Of a stretch of DNA of 64,000 nt, positions 13,874 through 64,000 are shown one piece after another. Where the stretch lies: NCBI RefSeq assembly GCF_019649055.1, contig NW_026570228.1, positions 1,922,001 to 1,986,000 of the forward strand, given 5' to 3'. Within the stretch, counting starts at the first letter, position 1, and each line of letters opens with the position of its first letter. The notes below the pieces were generated by a model. It did no database searches and was not told the DNA's origin. It was given only the letters and a program-made list of their open reading frames with translations. A program made the translations under genes and the position numbers. The DNA comes from Paramacrobiotus metropolitanus (taxonomy: Eukaryota > Tardigrada > Eutardigrada > Parachela > Macrobiotidae).

Positions 13874-14524
13874 CTCTCATGTATGGCGTACCAAACGGGC
13901 CAACAAATGCTAATGACAAATGCTTTTTAGTTTTCAATCAAATGTTACTGACAAATGTTTTTTGCTCCCAGACAAATGTTTTTTCAAAAAATTTGCTGAC
14001 AAATGTTTCTGACAAATGTTTTTACTCTCAGACTAATGTTTTTTAAAAAAATTTTACAGAGAAATGTTTTTGACAAATGTCAGAAACTTTCAGACAAATG
14101 TTACTGACAAATGTCAGAATTAGCTACCATCGCAAATCTGAGTGGGGACTTCGAAAATTTTCATTTTTTAGTAGAATTTCAATTCCACTCTTCCAGTACA
14201 GGGAAATTATTGGAGATCACTAGTCAAATGCTTCTGACATTTGTGAGAAGCATTTGTCAGAAAGTTTCTGACATTTGTCAGAAGCATTTGTCAGAAAGTT
14301 TCTGACATTTGTCAGAAACATTTGACTGTAAAATTTTTTTTAAAAACATTAGTCTGAGAGTAAAAAACATTTGTCAGAAACATTTGTCTGTAAAATTTAA
14401 AAAAAAACATTTGTCTGGTAGCAAAAAACATTTGTCAGTAACATTTGATTGAAAACTAAAAAGCATTTGTCATTAGCATTTGTCCGTAAAAACTGTGGCC
14501 CGTTTGGTACGCCATACTATCATG
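13874..14524. mobile_element. Foldback MITE, 635 bp, with 8-bp target duplication
   Basis: The element spans 13882-14516. It begins TATGGCGTACCAAACGGGCC and ends with the exact reverse complement. Inside each arm are many copies of GACAAATGTTTC / GAAACATTTGTC, so most of the element folds into a long hairpin. The flanks CTCTCATG (13874-13881) and CTATCATG (14517-14524) match at 7 of 8 bases. The same place in unit C (near 32650) is empty. There is no transposase frame. An 8-bp duplication fits hAT or P superfamilies. Confidence 0.8.
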
Positions 14525-36417: not shown

Positions 36418-39400
36418 GAAGCTGTGTTCCATATTGTATCTCAGTTACTTTTATCCCCAAGGATTTCGAATCCTCCCTTGTCCCTTGCGCGGTAAGTGCA
36501 TTACAGCTTATCGGCTTTGCAATTGCATAAATGCTAATGATCCTGCAGAATCCTGGAGTAACAAGAGGACTTTGTGGCCGGCGAAGCGTGTGCCTTATTG
36601 CCGCACATCGGTCGGACACATGCCAGTTTGTTTTGCCACTGCCGGTGTTATTACCGTGCTATTGTTTCTCTAGCTTCCAACAAACCCGATTGGTTGTGGG
36701 TTTGGAATCTGTGATAACCGCCGATTCGGATGTGCACCGGCAACATTGTATTTATTGAGCAGTTTTTTATCATTAGATGGTAAGTGATTTTTATCATATT
36801 TTTCCAGTATTATTATGAATGTTAGTTCAGTTATTTATGCGCTTTATTTACTTTGATTTGTTTTACTTTGTTTATCTTATTGCGACTTTACGCCTTTATA
36901 GTTGTTAATTTTTGTGCGAGTAGTTCTTCTCAGATATTAGGTGGATGACCTGTTGAATTTGATAAGCACAGAAATTGCGACAAGAATAATTTTACTTATA
37001 ACCTGACTTTTTGTTGTAGCGAATGCTTATGTTCCCGCGGAACTCACCACGCTATAGCAGAGTTTACCGGCGCTGGTCTCGCTGGCCACGGCTATCAACA
37101 AGTACAACAGCCGCGTCCAAGGCGCGGAAGCCGTTGCCGATCTGTTTCGGCTCTACCATGAGCGCTCCATCCAACCGGAAATGCCGCCAAATATGAGTCT
37201 GCATCTGGAACGTGTATTGGAGATGTGCCGGCGAAATCGTGAACGGAAGTATTTCGATGGTTCGCTAAGGGTATGTCTGTCTGCCGTTTCATATCGCATT
37301 TCTCCATTCATGCATGTTGTGGAGAAGACAAACTGGCTGATTTTTCTCGGAATTTGTTTTGCTGGTTGGAAGGACCTGGATTCACTTGTCCTCATTGACA
37401 TTACGCATACAAGCTGGAAATGGCAGCTTGTCGCGGCATTATTGAACGCCGATGCCATCCGTGCTAGTGATGCTGGTGGCTACAGGTTGGTTTAATTTAG
37501 ATACACGTTTTGTTGCAGACGGTATTTAACGCGCTCTAATAAACTTTATCAATCATGACAAACAGAAAATTACGTTTACACATGAAAGTTAAAGTGTGTA
37601 CGTACACGAAATTACGTATATAAGCAGTATTCTTTTTCCAAACCCTAAATTGTTGTCTTGTTTATGGTAATAAATGGTCAAAAACATTATACGAGTACGC
37701 CTCTGAGAAAGTATGTAATAAAACGACTCTCTTCGTAAGAAGTTTTCTCGCGTTACACACGCAACGTAAAATGTTGATATGTCTGTGGCATTGTCATTTG
37801 TATGCTTTACCTTTTACATACGTATCTGACATTTTGACTGTTATAGTTAAAGTATTGGCTGTCTGCTATACCACAAGAATTTAGTAACAGTAGTACAACT
37901 GCATCCTTGTTTGTTCTTTTAGATTTTTATGTACGAGGATGCACGCAGTCAAACCGACAGTGAATTTTTTCAGCGAGACCAACCGACAACCACGCACACA
38001 GGCAAATTATTTTTCCACATAACAGCCACCCGTGAAAGGGAGGTATCGTTTGCACTGTATGCGTGGAACAGGTGACAGCCATCCGTGAATGGTTGGCAGT
38101 CGCTTGTACTATATGCACGGTTGTCGGTTGGTCTCGCTGAAAAAATTTACTGTCGGTTTGACTGCGTGCATCCTCGTATAACTTGCTCATCTTCTAAAAT
38201 CCCCCGAATAAACTATTCTCCGCGATACCAAAAAAGCAAGATCTCGGCCGTTTGAAGCCACTTTGTACTAGTTATTTTGTGGAAACATTGCTGCCTGAAG
38301 TGCCAGATATACTACAGCAGAACTTACAGCAGAAGTTCTGCTGTAGCATACCTGGCACCTCAGGCAGGAACTGCAGAAGAGCTGCTGACAGATTTCACCG
38401 GGTATTTGAAAACGTCCCACGAAGATCCCGGCGCTGATGTGCTTTCAACCCGTTGAAACTGTTATCATCCTGCTCTTAGGGTTGTTTTCTTTTTTTTGTG
38501 GGAAAAGTATCATGCTATCCGGAGGGAGAGAAAATGCTACGGAAAACCGGCGTTGTTGATAATATTACGTTTGGGCGTCTGGTTTTCATAGAGGACATCC
38601 ATGAATCGTACATCAAACTAATTATCACGATGCTAGATTACCGGGATGATGTGTTATCAAGAGGATTACTACGCAGAGCCTTGAACCTTTGTTCACCGTT
38701 GAGCGGGACACTGATGACGTTAGTGGGCAACGTAATAGGTAGTTATTTATGTTTAAAAATCGAAAGCTCAAGTTCTGTAGTGATTATCGATTTTCATTTG
38801 TTAATAGATTGCATTTTGACTTAAGCGGCGTAATTATTTTTACAGGCTCTCCGGCGTTACGCGACGCTGCATTTGCGGACGCTTTTACGCTCGTCTGCCG
38901 TGATTATCTGAATGGGGAATGAAGTTGTTAATTGGACGGATGGCAGGATGCGAACATCACTGTCGCTCAGACAGCCGTGGAAACCATCGATGTAATTCGC
39001 GAGGAAATGCCCCATTTGGTGAGCGTTAAAGTTATCCGGGCAACGTCCACTGAGCCATTAACCATCAGTCCAAATGGGCGCTGTGGACTCTTGGTCACAT
39101 CGGCCGAACTGTCGATGGAATGTGGATGCTGAACGAGTACGATGTGCTGGATATGGTCGTTAACATTGCGGCGGAACATCCGAATTTATCCGTCCGTGGG
39201 TATGTGCAAATGCGAATTCATAGGTAGATCAAATTATATAGCGATAATTTGTTTAATTAAGGGCATTAACATTATTTTAGCATTGCTAAAGTGATGTTTA
39301 TTACGATGAAGTCAGTATCGGTTTAAAAATAGATAACGGTATGTATAAAAACCTAGCGACCGTACAGTATACAGTAATCATGCAGTAGTGTTTTTTTGTG

Positions 39401-41520: not shown

Positions 41521-42825
41521 GTTTCGTTTCTGTGCACTACACGGTCTCTGAAGCGTTTCTGCGAGTTTTAGACGCTGCATTGGCAGGAATGCAGCCTTAT
41601 GCGATTTTTTGGTTGACTTTTCCGGTTAAAGTTGGCTTGAAAACCGTTTGTTTTATTGTTTTATGGGTAAAAAACATTGCGTTTCGCACCTTTGCCGCTG
41701 TCTCGTGCACTTCCTCTCGCCAGAGAATATTATTATAACATGGAAATGCAAACATCGAGGATATCGTTGTAACATTGTTGCATATTAACGCATAATCCGT
41801 GAAGTGCGGCAAGTAAGCGCCGCAAGAAAGGAAGTAGGTAAGAAGTTCGACACATAAACGGAATGCGAAAGGATTACAGAATAAGAGACGGTAGAAGAGG
41901 TTCCATTTCTTCATTTTCTTGAGAACACATAATACCAGGTATAGACTTAATCGAAATCGTAGCAATATCTTATGTTTTTTAACATGCAGTAGCTTCACCG
42001 TTCAGCTCTTGCTAGCAAATACTAGGTATTGTACGAGGACCATTGGGTGCTGTGAACATACCCTGCACGATTAGGCTACGATGAACAGCCGGCTAAAGTT
42101 AAGCCGTTTGCATTCAGACTGTGATATCAGTGGCGTTGCGAGCTACGGCTGTTCATCGCAGCCTAATCGTGCAGGGTATGTTCACAGCACCCAATGGTCC
42201 TCGTACTACTGCAGTCTTTGCAGAATTATGACTCCGCTAAGAATTGAAGTTAGACAAATTGTCAAATTCTTATATGGGCTCATGCATGAGGAAACTTGGT
42301 TTTCGGTAATGATCATGAACAAAGATGCTCCCAGATTGTCAGAAAGCAGAAATGTATTGTGTCTGCAGCCTGCTTTCTGCGTCATGATTTTTGCAGTAAG
42401 TAATATTGTACAGCACATCTGTATCGCCTTTTAGTTTTTCACTCTTATGCCTGAAACGAACTCTAGCAGTGATGAATGAAGGTGCTCAACCGATATTTAG
42501 TAAATGACAGCAATATCAATTTCGTTTCAGCATTGCTTGCGCTGTTTCACCGTGCGTTAAGTCCAAGTTTTACACAAGCGGTAAGAAACTGTTTGCTTTG
42601 ACAAAGCCAGCAATTTTTATTTAAGTAGTTTATCGAAACAACCGGAGTTTTGTATGTATACAACCGAAAAAGCTAACGCCCACAAGAAAAAAGCAACTTC
42701 TACTCTGCTCCACAGTGTGTTATTCAAGAATAGCAAAATATACAAGAGATTTTAGCCAAAACAACTGGGCGATACGAACAAAACAAATAAATGGCCCAGA
42801 AACAACAAGGTAACTGAAAACCGCG
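41521..42825. other. Non-coding interval between Rictor copy 4 and the RRM gene
   Basis: The first 500 bases resemble the tails of the other Rictor copies. The rest holds the inverted repeat at 42031-42206. No gene is seen. Confidence 0.55.
42031..42206. repeat. Long inverted repeat, arms about 65 bp
   Basis: The left arm 42031-42094 (GTACGAGGACCATTGGGTGC...) pairs with 42141-42206, with one mismatch and a 2-base indel around a 46-bp loop. No target duplication is obvious. It could be a small foldback element or a local inverted duplication. Confidence 0.85.
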
Positions 42826-45793
42826 TCACTTTTCAGCGCTGCAGCCGGATACCGAACGACGGCGACGCGCAATTAATCCAGCCTTGGGAATGGACTCAAC
42901 CGTGGCCTTAATTTCGCGATCTGCAAAATTCGGTGAAATGAACGGTCAGATTAAACGATAAGCAAGCCCATTAGCCTAACAAGTGTAAACAACAAGTGTA
43001 AACTGAAACAATTATAGCAGATATGCTAATATAAATCACCATGTACTGAATTCATGAATTTCATGCTTTTATTTAGTTTGTTTATGGTTATTCATGAAAG
43101 CACAATACGAGTTTTTATTGTTGCTAAAAGGTGTAAAGCGCTTCCCTATTCAAATTATAATTACGTAACACAGACATACCGTCAATTAAATAACCGTTGA
43201 TTTCCTTGGCGGCAGACACGGCGCAATCCAACTGCGAGAAACGGATCACCGCATACCCTCCATTTTGGAGCTCCGCCGAGATAAAACTGGGATACGCTCC
43301 GAACGTATCCTACAGACACCGAATGATTACTGAATGTAAAATATCGGCTTCAGAAAATTCATACATTTAACTCGTTGTGCGTAGTGTCCGCTGGCAAGTG
43401 GGCCAGCTTCACCAGATACGGGTTATGCTGCATAACCTTGCTGAGCTGCTCTTCGATGGTGGTCACGCGCACTCCGAGCAATTTATTCTGTAAGTGAAAC
43501 AAAACTTAAAGGTTAAGGATTTACATGGAATCTTGATAGTTGATGTAACTTGTGAACTGCCACAGATCTTCTAAAGCAAGTATTCTGAAAATGCCACAGA
43601 TCTTCTAAAGCACATCAACATTTACTATACTTCTATGCCAAAATACCACCGATTACAACAAGCACGAAAGGGCAGTTTGTGGATTCATTTTCCGACACCC
43701 ACCTCTTCCTTCAACTTCACGTTCTGAAAAAATAATTCAAAGTAAATTTACGAAAATATGTTTTGTAATTTGCAAAACCCCAATTAAAGAACAAAATGTC
43801 AACATTAACTGTATGCTAAAGAAAAAAGTTGCGTTAACTGCCGCCACTGTACTATATTTTTAAAACTCACTGATACAAGAGCGTTATCATCAGCACATGT
43901 AGCAAATGCCGTAATGTTAATAATGCTACTCAAGATACTAGTTACGACAAGCACGAGTGAGCAGTTTGTGGATTTATTTTCCGAAACCTACCTCTTCCTT
44001 CATCTTCACATTCTGAAAAAATAATTCAAAGTAAATTAATGCAAATGTTTTTTGGTATTTGCAAAAAGCCAACTGGTTATGTTATTGGTATGTAAGGTTA
44101 CCGGTGCAGGCACCTACCTCTTCCTTCAACGCCACAATCTGAAACATAATAATTCAAAGTAAATTAACGCAGTCTATGGATTTGTTTTCCGCAACTTACC
44201 TCTTCCTTCATCTTCACATTCTGAAAAAATAATTCAAAGTAAATTAATGCAAATGTATTTTGCTATTTGCAAAAAGCCAACTGGTTATGTTATTGGTATG
44301 TTAATGTTACCGGTGCAGACACCTACCTCTTCCTTTAACCCCACAATCTAAAAAAATAATTCAAAATTAACGCAAATGTACGAGTTTGCAAAACGCCAAT
44401 ACAACAGAATGCTAAAATTAGCTGCATGCCACTCTAAAGAAAACGGATTACGTTACCGACGCCAATATACTAAGTACGACTGGTTAATTTGTGGATTCGT
44501 TTGCTGACACCTACCTCTTCCTTCGACTTCACATTCTGAAAAAAAATTCAAAGTAAATTAACGCAAATGTATTCTGCAATTTGCAAATGCCCGCTATGCA
44601 AGACAGGGTCAACATTAATTGCATACTAAAGAAAAAAATTAAAACTTGTATGCAATTGTACAATTGAATTATCTACGACTACAAGTACTTACAAGGTATT
44701 GTTTATGCACTTCTTTTACTCGAATTGTGTACCAGAAAGCAGTAAGTACTTTAAGCTTTTGTTAGTTAAGTAATTGAAGTGCGCTTCCTTACTGCACCCT
44801 ACAGATACATAACAAATACGAAGCGCACTCCGATTTCTTAGAACATGATGCAAAATGAGTTACTGTACGTACTTACATTTCATTTGTAGAATGTGCGATA
44901 ACGATTTTTCACTGTTGTCAAATTAATTTAACTTCAAGCCGCCCCGTAAAACAATAATTAAAAAAATACACCTCATTGTTCAACTGTTCAATCAGAAAAT
45001 TTAAGCCAAATTTATATTGCGTATTAGCCAAGTATTCAAGAGCACCAAATATGCATATTGTAATCAATGTAATGTAATGTAATTTGTAATGTACAGTACC
45101 ATGCTCTCCAAATCGCCCACTCGTCCTTGCAGAAGCTGCACATGCGACTTCAGATCCGTATTCTGCAAAACAACAAGATAGTGCAACTAAAGTCAGTTTA
45201 TCAGCTTATCTAGAATATACTCTTGCAGTTTACTAGTAATTGGTCGTACGACATTCTGGCTAAATTGGTATAAAGAACGGAAAGCAATTCAACATTCCTA
45301 GCTTGGTGAACGGTAAAATTAACGTTCAACAAGGAACAAATGATAACCAGCATGATAAAAGCTGAAGCATATAATATGTGTTAGTGATCGCCTTACCTCA
45401 TTTATCAGATTATCAAAACCTTCCGCGACAACTTCCCCAAAATCCTCATTCAAGGCCCGAGGCTCGCTCGAATCAGCGGCGGGGCGGTCATCCTAAAAGC
45501 AGTCATCTTCTTGTACATGCATCCAAGCATACCCGTAGGCAGTATATGTTGTATAAACGTCGTAATGCATCACATTTTCTGACCTGGTAGCCGTAGATGT
45601 CCATTGGGCTTCGCGCAACCCGATCCTGGCGCGAAAAAGCCTCCGGTGTGGACATTTGTCTGAAGTCCCGGTAAGATGCCCGGACTCGTTGTGCGAACGC
45701 TCCCAAACTACGTCGAAGACGGCGAATGCGACCGCCGTTTGCCGGGCTATTTTGCGGACTGCCAGTCATTCTGTAATCTACACACCAAACCAT
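42826..45793 (-). CDS. Coiled-coil plus RRM protein with heptad microexons (280 aa)
   Basis: Exons in transcript order: 45584-45793, 45397-45492, 45100-45162, six 21-nt exons (44515-44535, 44327-44347, 44200-44220, 44118-44138, 43992-44012, 43703-43723), 43365-43487, 43180-43309, 42826-42920. They total 843 nt and all phases agree. The N-terminal 100 residues are Arg-rich (GGRIRRLRRSLGAFAQRVRA), then acidic (EDFGEVVAEGFDNLINE). Twelve unbroken heptads follow (about residues 103-186, NTDLKSH to LSKVMQH). A C-terminal RRM-like fold comes last: YLVKLAHLPADT as RNP2, GGYAVIRFS as RNP1, AAKEINGYLIDDREIKATVE, then a basic tail ARRRRSVSG. It probably binds RNA as a dimer or oligomer; that is inference. 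Both M1 and M9 are possible starts, and a stop precedes M1 in frame. I do not recognise the orthologue. Confidence 0.72.
43703..44535 (-). repeat. Tandem array of six intron-microexon units
   Basis: Each unit has a 21-nt exon of the form (N/I)VxxKEE, preceded on the coding strand by TTGAATTATTTTTTCAG and followed by GTAGGTGTCTG-like donor sequence. Parts of the introns also repeat (AACTGGTTATGTTATTGGTATG at about 44070 and 44280). The array grew by duplication of a whole exon-plus-intron unit. Confidence 0.85.
44972..44992 (-). pseudogene. Decayed seventh heptad microexon
   Basis: The minus strand reads IEQLNNE over exactly 21 nt with a GTGTAT donor, but the base before the exon is changed so the acceptor reads TTTTCTG instead of TTTTCAG. 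It would fit the heptad register if spliced. A shorter 12-nt use of AACAG is also possible. Confidence 0.4.
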
Positions 45794-57675: not shown

Positions 57676-60600
57676 TCACTGAACAATCTGCCACAAGAGC
57701 AGCTGAGATTCATCATTACACCGAATAAACTCTAGCCGATCATTCCGCACGCCCAAACACAGTGCCTTCACCACGCTCATAATGGACGTATGCCTCTGGT
57801 TCTTCGAATACACCCACGCCTGCTCCTGGCCACTGTAGTGGCACTTGCCCAACCGCGGCACATCCGCCGCTTCCAGACACAACTTCCGGCCCAACACCAG
57901 GGCGCGCGATTGTTTTTCTTCGTATATCAGCGCCCGTTTCCCGTCCTTATCACAGTCCACCAACGCTGCCGGATCATCTCGCACCAGAGACTCCGTGCCG
58001 ATACACTTCCCTGTGTAAAGTACAGGATTACAATTCATTCGCCTTTTGCAAAGATGAGAAAATGTAATCTGATTTGAAATGAAATGTGAAATTATTTAAA
58101 CTATTTACTCCTGGTTTTTCTTCGATAACTCCTTGGTTTACGCGCCAAAACGGTTAGACTCGTAGTTAAAACATTATTTTTATTTCATTTTACCAGTTGC
58201 TTTAGTGATACCAAATCTTCTTGTTCACTTAAAATTATCTTTATCAGACTCAATCCTTTCTAATTTGTTCTTTCAATTCAAAATCAGTCAAATTTCAAAC
58301 GCGCGAAGACCCCTTTAATTTTGAAATGATTTTAACCTGAAGTCTAGAATTTACAATTGTTTTTCAACCATACCTGTGTGAACATGACGCAGTTGGAATT
58401 TTCCTGTGAAACTGAGCTGCGGCTTCTCAATCACCGCCCCGGATGGAGACAGGGCCTCCGGATAAATGTTGTCGACAAACCACTGAAATGACCGGCAGTG
58501 TAGATCAGATTTTAGTTGAACCCGGGAGGAAATATCGCCGGCGTCCAGCTGGCGCGCTTCCGGACGGGCGTCGTAGAATTTGTCAATGTAGTCGCCCAGC
58601 CAGACGCGGGCCAACCGCAAGCTATTGGTCAGCTGGGTGTCGCCCTTGCCGTCGTTGCCGTAAGGACGCCGGTGGCGGAAAATGTGGCCGACCCGCGAAC
58701 AAGGGGAGATGAGCAGCGTCCCGCCACACAGCCAGATGCGCAGGGATAATTCAATGTTCTCGCCGCCCCAGATATCCATGCCGGTATCGTATTCGCCTGT
58801 ATACAAACATCAATCAACATACTTATACACTGAATCCAAATACTGTCTATTAAAAGAGATATAATGCACCAAACGCACACGACAAAAAACTAAAAAGGAA
58901 ATAAAATTTAATGTATTAAAATTTTAAAAACTGTTCTAATGTACTAATGTTTAAATGTACTAAAACATTATTCAGATCCAACATGGCTGAACAGTAAAAA
59001 TAAATGCAAACATGAGACCCTTTAAGGCAAAAAACATTCATATTTTCATATAAACCTAATACAGCCAGTTCAACAACAATGACAAAAGAAAAAGCAAGCC
59101 AAGTAATATTAACGCAGATTTGTATACTGCGCCACAAACTAACCGATCTGACGAAAATAGTGTCGATGTATTGCAAATAATCCTCCGGCCATTGCGGCAC
59201 TGCGAAATGGGTGAATAATTTCGCCCTCAGAATTGGCATTCGGAAGTGATTCCCATCGAAAATGTAAGCCCCAGTTGAAACCTGCCAGCAAAGCACGTAC
59301 GTTGGGATATCACGAAAAGTACAAAAGCAACACAAAATGAAAGAGTACCATGAACTGTTTAGGATACGCAGAGACGATGTATCAAAATAATTTTTAAGGT
59401 CGTAATACTGAAACAACGCCGGTATTGGCGGTATCTGGTATGCACGAAAGAATTTATGGAGCGAAAAAACTACACGCAAATAATTACCAAGAAATTGTCG
59501 ATATGATCAAAGATGTCAACAGGGACTACGAAAACTGTTGCGCGAAACGAAAAACATCGTCAACACATTCAATGTAAATTTACCGACTAACCTCCTCTTA
59601 CATGCGGCGACGGTGCATACTCAAAGGAATCCGAATGGATAATGTCAATGGTTGGACAGATCACTGTAGAATGATTATCCTGGATCGCAGCAACAAGTGG
59701 CTCCATCCAGCCTTCATTTACTTCACAATGTGAATCTGGTCAAAGTAAAGTAAATCATCATAAATGAGTAAAATAATGCCACCAAGCAGTTGCGAGATAT
59801 GTGGCCACACCTTCAACATACGTCACGACAGAATTAAAATCATTTTCTGTACCAGTACCACCTCTTTTCAAATTAACAAAGAAAAAGAAGGAAAAACAAA
59901 CATTTCCGCATCGCGCTTCTAGCTTGCATGATAAAAAGCAGTACTAATTTGCATATAAATCAGTAACGTACCCATAAAAAATAAAACATCGCCATTAGCC
60001 TGTCGCGCGCCAGCCACTCGTGCACGAATTAATCCTTCGCGTTTTTCCAGCCGAATTAAATGAATTTTAGCACTAACAGCGCGGAGAACATCCAACAAAT
60101 CGCCACCGATGAACTCCTTCGCGGAAAAGTCATCGATTAATAAAATTTCCACTAGTAAATTTCCGGGCGACCGATTAACGACGGATGCGACGGTTCGCAA
60201 CAGAACACTGCGTGCTTCATTGTGAAAGCAAATAATCACGCTGACGGTCTTGGATAATTCGCTATACACCACATTCTTGCATCCGGCAGACCTGGAAAAT
60301 TATATATAAGATATAGAAACCTGGAAAATTATATATAAAATATACGTACACAATCGCATAATACCAACAAAAGCGTAGCAGAAAGGGAAAGACCGAAAAT
60401 GATGAACAATATAATTAAAACGTTCTAAAAAAATCGAAATTCCTTATTTTTTTTTGACGTTTCTAACCAGTCGCGTGTCTTAGTAAAAAGGAGATTTTTA
60501 TTACTGGCAAAGGCCAAAACGAGTCAAAATAATAGTAGTAAATACATAAAACTAATAAAAACTAGATTGTTCTGTAGATTTGCTGAATTATTTAATTTTG

Positions 60601-62736: not shown

Positions 62737-63023
62737 GATACGTGAATCACGTCGATCAGAGATCGCATGACCAAGTTATGAATTTATTCAATCATTTCTG
62801 GATTTAAGGAGTTTAATACTCCTTCTTGCTGATGACGTCATATATACGTCATAAATGACACGTTCGACTCATATTTTTTTCCACTCATAAAGGTCAAACT
62901 AGGTCACAAAGGTCACTTGACTGAAATACTGAAAACAGTTACAATTAAATAATAGTTGCTTAGCGGTAATGCTATTATTTAGCCAACTTATTTTCGCGTA
63001 ATTTCTCAGACAATTTGTGTTTT

Positions 63024-63500
63024 CACAGCTAGGTGACTCGTTTCTTTAAAAGAGACATATGGGCTGGTTACAGCTACCAGCAGCGTTACTCCTTTCTTTA
63101 AACGAGACAGGAAGTAGAACTTCGAACTAATGTTACTCCTTTCTTTAAGCAAAACAGAAGAAGTGAAGAAGTAGCACCTCACAGCAGTATTACTCCTTTC
63201 TTCAAACGAGACAGAAGTGGTAACACCCCACAGCAATGTTACTCCTTTCTTTAAACGAGACAGAACTAATAACACCCATTAGCAATGTTATTCCTTTCTT
63301 TAAACGAGAAAGAACTGGTGACACCCCAAAGCAGTGTTAATTCTTTCTTTAAACGAGACAGAAGTGACAACACCCCACAGCAATGTTACTCGTTTTTTAA
63401 ACGAGACAGGAAAAGTAACAACTCACAGCAATGTTATGCGCAGAAGAAGGCAGAAGAAGGAACAACTAAACGCAACGCTACTCCTTTCTCTAAACGATAC
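63024..63500. repeat. Minisatellite, about ten units of roughly 50 bp
   Basis: The core TACTCCTTTCTTTAAACGAG (then ACAG) recurs near 63041, 63091, 63131, 63191, 63241, 63291, 63336, 63386 and 63472, with the linker AACACCCCACAGCAATGT. Units vary by substitution and small indels. Open frames through it arise from the repeat. Confidence 0.9.
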
Positions 63501-64000
63501 ATGAATAACTGACACCCCAGAATTGATTTGGTTTCGTTCACTGTTTCGCAGTTTAGGTTACCTCTTTCTTATGTTTCCTCGTTATATTTGTTATGATTTC
63601 TTATAATTTTTGTGTTGTCTTATGCTTCTTGTAATTCTTATATTTCGTTGTTTTTTACGATATCCTGTACTTCTTAGATTTTATTTTTAATGTGATTCGC
63701 TAAAATAGATGTTAGCTTGTGACCTTCAGATGACCTTTACTCCAAAGGTCACGACGATTCATTTCAGAGGAACGGAGTCGATGACGTCATCAGCGTGTCC
63801 TGCTTTCGTGGGTCATTTTACCATTTTGTACGTCACCGTGGTTAAATAGCACGAGAATGACTAGTTTAAAAAAGGCCCGAAAATTGACGAAATTTAAAAA
63901 AATTTAGAATTTGGTCACGTGATTTATTATTCACCTGAGATGGGTACTGTTCGACTCAGAATTTTTTCTGAACAAAACAAGTAATGCACCGTCTTTTTGT

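What the first reader, a model, noticed from the sequence alone, without database searches (positions are those of the whole stretch)
43703..44535. Six tandem 21-nt microexons, each encoding exactly one coiled-coil heptad
All six exons are 21 nt, phase 0 at both ends, and read NVKSKEE, IVGLKEE, NVKMKEE, IVALKEE, NVKMKEE, NVKLKEE in transcript order. The flanking exon 45100-45162 is exactly three heptads, and 43365-43487 starts with three more in the same register. Position a alternates Asn/Ile or Val and position d is Leu/Met, as in dimeric zippers. Skipping or adding any exon would change coil length by one heptad without breaking the register, so splicing or unequal exchange could tune the length of the rod. 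I know of no described gene with this layout; novelty is my inference.
Basis: partly seen in the sequence, partly recalled or inferred. Interest (0 to 1): 0.85.

Follow-up and report, generated by a model that had tools for sequence, protein, structure and literature searches.

The report
Coiled-coil gene with one-heptad microexons
A tardigrade gene for a rod-shaped protein with an RNA-binding-type domain carries six neighbouring 21-letter exons, each predicted to spell exactly one seven-residue step (heptad) of the rod, so copying or skipping an exon would lengthen or shorten the rod without breaking it; whether the animal really varies the length is untested.

Summary
On the minus strand, 42826-45769 splices into one 12-exon, 272-residue frame with GT-AG introns. 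Six 21-nt phase-0 exons lie where stated and read as reported; their splice-signal pattern occurs nowhere else in the window and in none of 500 shuffles of the gene. The protein has a basic N-terminus, a 13-heptad coiled coil and an RRM (Pfam E 1.4e-8). The genome is a eutardigrade's, by size probably Paramacrobiotus metropolitanus. A gene about 43 kb away has a paralogous RRM with the same 130-nt exon and intron phases.

The array grew by tandem duplication: an about 208-bp block with two exons is present twice at 91%. A probable diverged seventh unit (44972-44992) has TG for its acceptor AG (weak by nhmmer).

Best reading: a rod lengthened heptad by heptad through microexon duplication, probably mostly constitutive. 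Splice-regulated length is possible but unshown; no RNA data were available. Tandem repeat-coding mini-exons are known (avian troponin T, schistosome MEGs); one heptad per exon looks like a new variant.

The parts
45584..45769 (-). CDS exon 1 (start ATG; basic, hydrophilic N-terminus)
   Evidence: open frame, GT donor, phase 0
45397..45492 (-). CDS exon 2; its last heptad FDNLINE starts the coil
45100..45162 (-). CDS exon 3, 63 nt = three heptads; donor GTACTG
44972..44992 (-). Probable diverged seventh unit, would read IEQLNNE; GT follows, but TG stands where AG should be, so probably dead for canonical splicing. A 12-nt exon (LNNE) using the internal CAG cannot be excluded
   Evidence: weight-matrix score 20.5, 0 of 1000 shuffles of this intron; next best in the window, both strands, after the six, when the upstream flank is included. 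Against: exon letters alone do not stand out and nhmmer E is 2.8, below seven chance hits
44515..44535 (-). Microexon 1, NVKSKEE
44327..44347 (-). Microexon 2, IVGLKEE (TAG acceptor)
44200..44220 (-). Microexon 3, NVKMKEE
44118..44138 (-). Microexon 4, IVALKEE
43992..44012 (-). Microexon 5, NVKMKEE (letter for letter the same as microexon 3)
43703..43723 (-). Microexon 6, NVKLKEE
43961..44374 (-). Two adjacent copies of an about 208-bp block, each with one I-type and one N-type microexon, 91% alike; the 61-nt intron 44139-44199 probably holds the junction (inference)
43365..43487 (-). CDS exon 10: last heptads of the coil and start of the RRM
43180..43309 (-). CDS exon 11: core of the RRM, 130 nt, phases 0 and 1 as in the neighbouring paralogue
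42826..42920 (-). CDS exon 12: end of RRM, basic tail, stop TGA

Best explanation
This is a eutardigrade protein-coding gene for a coiled-coil rod, of parallel-dimer type by sequence, joined to an RNA recognition motif. The rod was lengthened by tandem duplication of a small genomic unit that holds one 21-nt phase-0 exon encoding one heptad, in at least one step two such exons at once. Because the exon borders fall between heptad positions g and a, each added exon adds about 1.04 nm of coil and keeps the register. Shown by sequence: the exons, frame, splice signals, register and block duplication. Inferred: that all six are normally joined into the mRNA, that the rod dimerises the RRM, and that short introns and the purine-rich AAGGAAGAG end of each exon (a possible splicing enhancer, untested) let so small an exon be recognised. 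Skipping of single exons would give rods of 7 to 13 heptads; whether the animal uses it is unknown, so this reading overlaps with the 'ruler' rival below.
For: One open 272-residue frame through 12 exons with 11 GT-AG introns; each of the 11 introns has stops in all three frames. RRM_1 34.9 bits against cut-off 20.7. The neighbouring gene shares the 130-nt RRM exon and both intron phases, which supports the 3' part of the model independently. Heptads: 19 of 26 a/d hydrophobic, 0 of 100000 residue shuffles as good; 8 attractive and 0 repulsive of 12 g-e' pairs. Array signal 6 against 0 in 500 shuffles. Among the four N-type units the exons vary in 3 of 21 columns against 19 of 34 downstream intron columns, Fisher p 0.004; pairwise 10 of 126 exon bases differ, 43 of 327 upstream, 73 of 240 downstream. 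Related copies are not independent, so the p value is a guide only. Block duplication.
Against: No transcript data. Exons 1 and 2 rest on open frame and splice signals only. Exon 3 has an unusual donor (GTACTG). Conservation of exons over the upstream flank is not significant (3 of 21 against 5 of 18 variable columns, p 0.43), so it does not by itself show coding selection. In the most recent block pair exons differ at 2 of 42 bases against about 9% of the block, no clear difference. Only one genome could be searched, so conservation between species is untested. No coiled-coil predictor or structure prediction was run.
Confidence: 0.74

Rival explanations
1. Splice-regulated ruler: the six exons are skipped or included in different numbers by tissue or state, and rod length is the regulated output. 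(Overlaps with the best explanation, which leaves skipping open.)
For: All six exons are phase 0 and any subset keeps frame and heptad register. Microexon 2 has a TAG acceptor and donors differ slightly between copies. Precedent for splice-in of tandem repeat exons: avian troponin T.
Against: No RNA evidence; symmetry follows from duplication of one symmetric exon and needs no regulation. All six fit TTTYAG / GTRRGT, so none is marked as clearly weak.
Confidence: 0.24
2. Mutually exclusive exons: each transcript takes one of the six, as in Dscam- or Mhc-type clusters.
For: Tandem similar exons of equal length and phase are the usual anatomy.
Against: Microexons 3 and 5 are letter-for-letter identical, so a choice between them would change nothing; inclusion of several keeps frame, so exclusivity is not enforced by frame; the introns between them (61-268 nt) are no shorter than the gene's own 55-nt intron.
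Confidence: 0.07
3. The units are intronic repeats that are not in the mRNA; the heptad look is a by-product of a duplicated sequence.
For: Introns are duplicated with the exons; the upstream flank is about as conserved as the exon; no RNA data.
Against: Six of six keep AG, GT, frame and heptad register, and they join coil in the same register on both sides. The array DNA matched only itself in the genome (4 of 4 places); the 23-base exon pattern with up to 3 mismatches matched four of its own exons and one other place, with 3 mismatches, on another contig. Withheld or gapped stretches read N, so rarity is not absolute.
Confidence: 0.07
4. Assembly artefact: mis-assembly multiplied a single exon.
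For: The published assembly uses nanopore long reads, polished with Illumina reads (PMC8277472, passages), and the array is a tandem repeat.
Against: Exon pairs differ by 2-5 bases (0 in one of 15 pairs) and downstream flanks by up to 23 of 40, so the units are not error copies; the array spans 833 bases while the read N50 is given as about 17 kbp (PMC11191345, passages).
Confidence: 0.03

Closest known systems
Avian fast skeletal troponin T P exons (PMC7581897, passages)
   Same: Up to seven exons encoding a repeated short motif; splicing more of them in makes a longer segment
   Different: His/Glu-rich variable region of troponin T, not coiled-coil heptads; alternative splicing there is reported, here not shown. 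No troponin family among the 25 Pfam rows shown of 30
Schistosoma micro-exon genes, MEGs (PMC10526429, passages)
   Same: Runs of very short exons, mostly a multiple of three
   Different: MEGs: 10 to 20 very short exons, mostly 15 bp, introns of 100 to almost 5000 bp, signal peptide. Here 6 of 12 coding exons are micro, introns 55-564 nt, hydrophilic N-terminus, coil plus RRM
Fibrillar collagen genes with 54-bp exons (recalled)
   Same: Exon borders match the structural repeat, so duplication keeps register
   Different: Gly-X-Y triplets, several per exon; here exactly one heptad
Neighbouring RRM gene at about C8:1920264-1922600 (Aly/REF- or SKAR-like; name recalled)
   Same: RRM 42-43% identical with the same exon length and intron phases
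   Different: No microexon or coil noticed by eye in the stretch read; Gly/Arg-rich N-terminus
LINE-1 ORF1p (recalled; its coiled coil is named in an abstract start listed)
   Same: Basic N-terminus, heptad coil and RRM in that order
   Different: Trimer of a retroelement, no introns (recalled); here a spliced gene with a paralogous host RRM

Membership tests
RRM proteins (PF00076) | RRM with curated score | tested here: met
   34.9 bits against 20.7, residues 187-246
Coiled-coil proteins | Hydrophobic a/d pattern in one register | tested here: met
   19 of 26 a/d over 13 heptads, best other register 13, 0 of 100000 shuffles as good; no dedicated predictor or structure was run
Schistosome-type micro-exon gene | N-terminal signal peptide | tested here: not met
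   N-terminus MTGSPQNSPANGGRIRRLRR is hydrophilic and basic; judged by reading, no predictor run
Schistosome-type micro-exon gene | CDS made mainly of micro-exons (10 to 20 very short exons) | tested here: not met
   six microexons, 126 of 819 coding bases
Troponin T with P exons | Troponin domain | tested here: not met
   no troponin family among the 25 Pfam rows shown of 30
Mutually exclusive exon cluster | Exactly one exon of the cluster per transcript | not testable with these tools
   no RNA data; identical microexons 3 and 5 argue against
Alternatively spliced length ruler | Isoforms with different exon numbers | not testable with these tools
   no RNA data

The most novel reading that the evidence does not exclude
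A splice-coded molecular ruler: the tardigrade sets the length of the rod that carries its RRM in steps of one heptad (about 1 nm) by including zero to six heptad exons, with the mixed Asn/Ile a positions acting as register marks so that isoforms of equal length pair; copy number is still turning over, as the duplicated block and the probable dead seventh unit suggest.
Probability: 0.2. Interest if true: 0.78.

Novelty: new variant of a known kind. Interest (0 to 1): 0.5.

Why it matters
It shows exon duplication at the smallest unit that keeps a coiled coil in register, one heptad, so rod length can evolve (and possibly be regulated) in 1-nm steps without damage to frame or register. The array holds duplications of different age and probably a dead unit, so birth and loss of structural microexons can be read in one gene and compared across tardigrades with public RNA-seq.

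Tried and rejected
Nematode idea: the SL1 family search found nothing, but its control rang nowhere either, so it says nothing. COX1: 0 matches in the assembly, control rang in 8 of 14. A lipocalin/FABP hit matched FABPs of many animals and did not identify the organism; SAHS did. Tandem Repeats Finder does not list the array. Rfam at gathering scores and the tRNA scan of the window: nothing. Origin of the microexon from exon 3 or exon 10: best ungapped match 11 of 21 for exon 3's first heptad, the same as for exon 2's last heptad, 6 of 21 for exon 10; unresolved. Competing RNA pairing between introns: one 18-nt imperfect inverted pair (I2) inside the repeated sequence, judged chance by eye and not tested. 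No other eukaryote genome was available, so orthologues were not searched; viral contigs and genome contigs were not scanned. PDB search of the coil gave one weak match, a designed coil (E 0.0054).

Full report
Check of the observation. With three upstream and three downstream exons they splice into an 819-nt reading frame, 272 residues plus stop, with 11 GT-AG introns of 55-564 nt, each with stops in all three frames. The signal TTTYAG-N21-GTRRGT with an open frame occurs 6 times in the gene and not elsewhere in the window on either strand; 500 dinucleotide shuffles of the gene gave none; 20 shuffles of the whole minus strand gave a mean of 0.05, maximum 1. Other lengths from 12 to 60 in steps of 3 gave none in the gene, and one hit each for 12 and 30 elsewhere in the window.

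Organism. The window is G000:C8:1922001-1986000 of a 169,799,020-base assembly in 533 contigs. A tardigrade SAHS1 query, recalled and then matched to PDB 5xn9 (E 1.4e-93), hit 14 places, 13 of them on C3, at up to 64% identity. SAHS proteins are known from eutardigrades (recalled). The published Paramacrobiotus sp. TYO assembly is 170,483,395 bases in 684 scaffolds (PMC8277472, passages); a later paper gives 170 Mbp for P. metropolitanus (PMC11191345, passages). The species name is therefore probable, not proven.

The protein. A basic N-terminus, then 13 heptads in one register from residue 88 (FDNLINE) to residue 178, then an RRM (PF00076, 34.9 bits, cut-off 20.7; best PDB matches are RRMs of Npl3, PABP and Rna15). 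In the heptads a and d are hydrophobic (ILVMF) in 19 of 26; the best other register has 13; 0 of 100000 residue shuffles reached 19. Asn stands at a in six of 13 heptads; all six microexons have Lys at e and Glu at g; over the whole coil 8 of 12 g-e' pairs are attractive and none repulsive, which is the usual signature of a parallel dimer (established knowledge). One d position is Ser. Six heptads are about 6.2 nm of a 13.5-nm rod. The coil has no close relative among solved structures: one weak match, a designed coil.

Origin of the RRM. Of seven matches of the protein in the genome, six are the gene itself and the seventh is an RRM exon at C8:1921706-1921846, 43% identical (42% over 45 residues), about 43 kb from the gene and just left of the window. 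That gene has a phase-0 intron at the same place (SDLN|DLF against NELN|DTF), an exon of 130 nt as here (C8:1921712-1921841), and a phase-1 intron at the matching place after it. Its Gly/Arg-rich start and RRM recall Aly/REF or SKAR (name recalled; Pfam gives RRM_1 only; in the PDB nucleolin is best and ALY is listed). So the gene looks like a paralogue that gained a coil; the direction is inferred.

History of the array. Blocks 43961-44171 and 44169-44374 are 91% alike over 212 aligned bases and each holds an I-type and an N-type exon. A genome search with 288 bases of the array found 4 places, all in this array. The exon pattern search, up to 3 mismatches, found four of the six exons and one place on another contig with 3 mismatches. 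The 61-nt intron 44139-44199 appears to join the downstream flank of an N-type exon to the upstream flank of an I-type exon, as at a tandem duplication junction (inference). Among the four N-type units, exons vary in 3 of 21 columns, downstream intron in 19 of 34 (Fisher p 0.004), the 18 bases upstream in 5 of 18 (p 0.43 against the exon); the copies are related, so these are guides only. The last nine bases AAGGAAGAG are the same in all six; they code for KEE and are also a purine-rich sequence of the kind that often acts as a splicing enhancer (recalled; not tested).

A probable seventh unit. A weight matrix from the six units (26 bases before, exon, 6 after) scores 20.5 at 44972-44992, in the intron between exon 3 and the first microexon. 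0 of 1000 shuffles of that intron reached it; the three other introns tested gave nothing above shuffles. In the whole window on both strands the next score is 4.1, against 50.6-71.6 for the six. Against it: with the exon letters alone, or exon plus donor, the site does not stand out from chance places, and a gapped nhmmer profile saw it only at E 2.8, behind seven non-array places. It would read IEQLNNE, with Ile at a, Leu at d and Glu at g, and GT follows; but TG stands where AG should be. It is 13-14 of 21 identical to the six. I take it for a probable dead unit. The first AG of this intron lies inside it at offset 115; AG-free stretches that long are 11 of 3345 on this strand. So a 12-nt exon LNNE, which would add a four-residue stutter, cannot be excluded; this is after the fact and speculative.

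Mechanism. Constitutive inclusion needs least: similar splice signals on all six, and two exons identical in sequence, which make no sense as alternatives to each other but add length. Regulated skipping would keep frame and register for every subset, which makes a length ruler possible, but nothing in the sequence demands it. Mutually exclusive use is unlikely.

Known relatives of the layout. Avian fast troponin T has up to seven P exons with repeated His-Glu-rich motifs that are spliced in after hatching in pectoral muscle (PMC7581897, passages). Schistosome MEGs have 10 to 20 very short exons, mostly a multiple of three (PMC10526429, passages). Searches for heptad-coding microexons gave no such gene among the listings seen (0 papers; 25: 9 of 9; 43: 15 of 1,158; 47: 12 of 32; 49: 4 of 4; 52: 0; open-licence library only). 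In a search on tardigrade, microexon, exon duplication and Rictor none of the 12 shown of 22 papers mentions tardigrades, and a tardigrade genome paper has no occurrence of 'microexon' or 'Rictor' in its main text (PMC5531438, word search). I file it as a new variant of a known kind.

Noticed in passing
window 5599-41911: About four tandem copies of a Rictor-like gene region (pairwise pieces 70-93% alike); of the ORFs scanned, one gave Pfam RICTOR_M and one RasGEF_N_2. A subunit gene of mTORC2 multiplied in a tardigrade.
   Followed up: partly
window 1 to about 700 and G000:C8:1920264-1922000 (L012): Gly/Arg-rich RRM gene that shares RRM exon length and intron phases with the microexon gene; a further exon lies in the window from about 566.
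   Followed up: partly
G000:C3:446414-467166: Cluster of at least six SAHS-like genes, a tardigrade desiccation protein family.
   Followed up: no
window 13881-14517, 37932-38178, 42031-42206: Self-inverted stretches of about 180-680 bases, 71-82% alike, in or beside the Rictor array; possibly small mobile elements.
   Followed up: no
window 63023-63517: Degenerate tandem repeats, copies offset by roughly 100-250 bases.
   Followed up: no
window 58351-59479 (-): ORFs of which the first reads by eye like the end of a polypeptide GalNAc-transferase; Pfam gave no family for either ORF at E 0.01.
   Followed up: no
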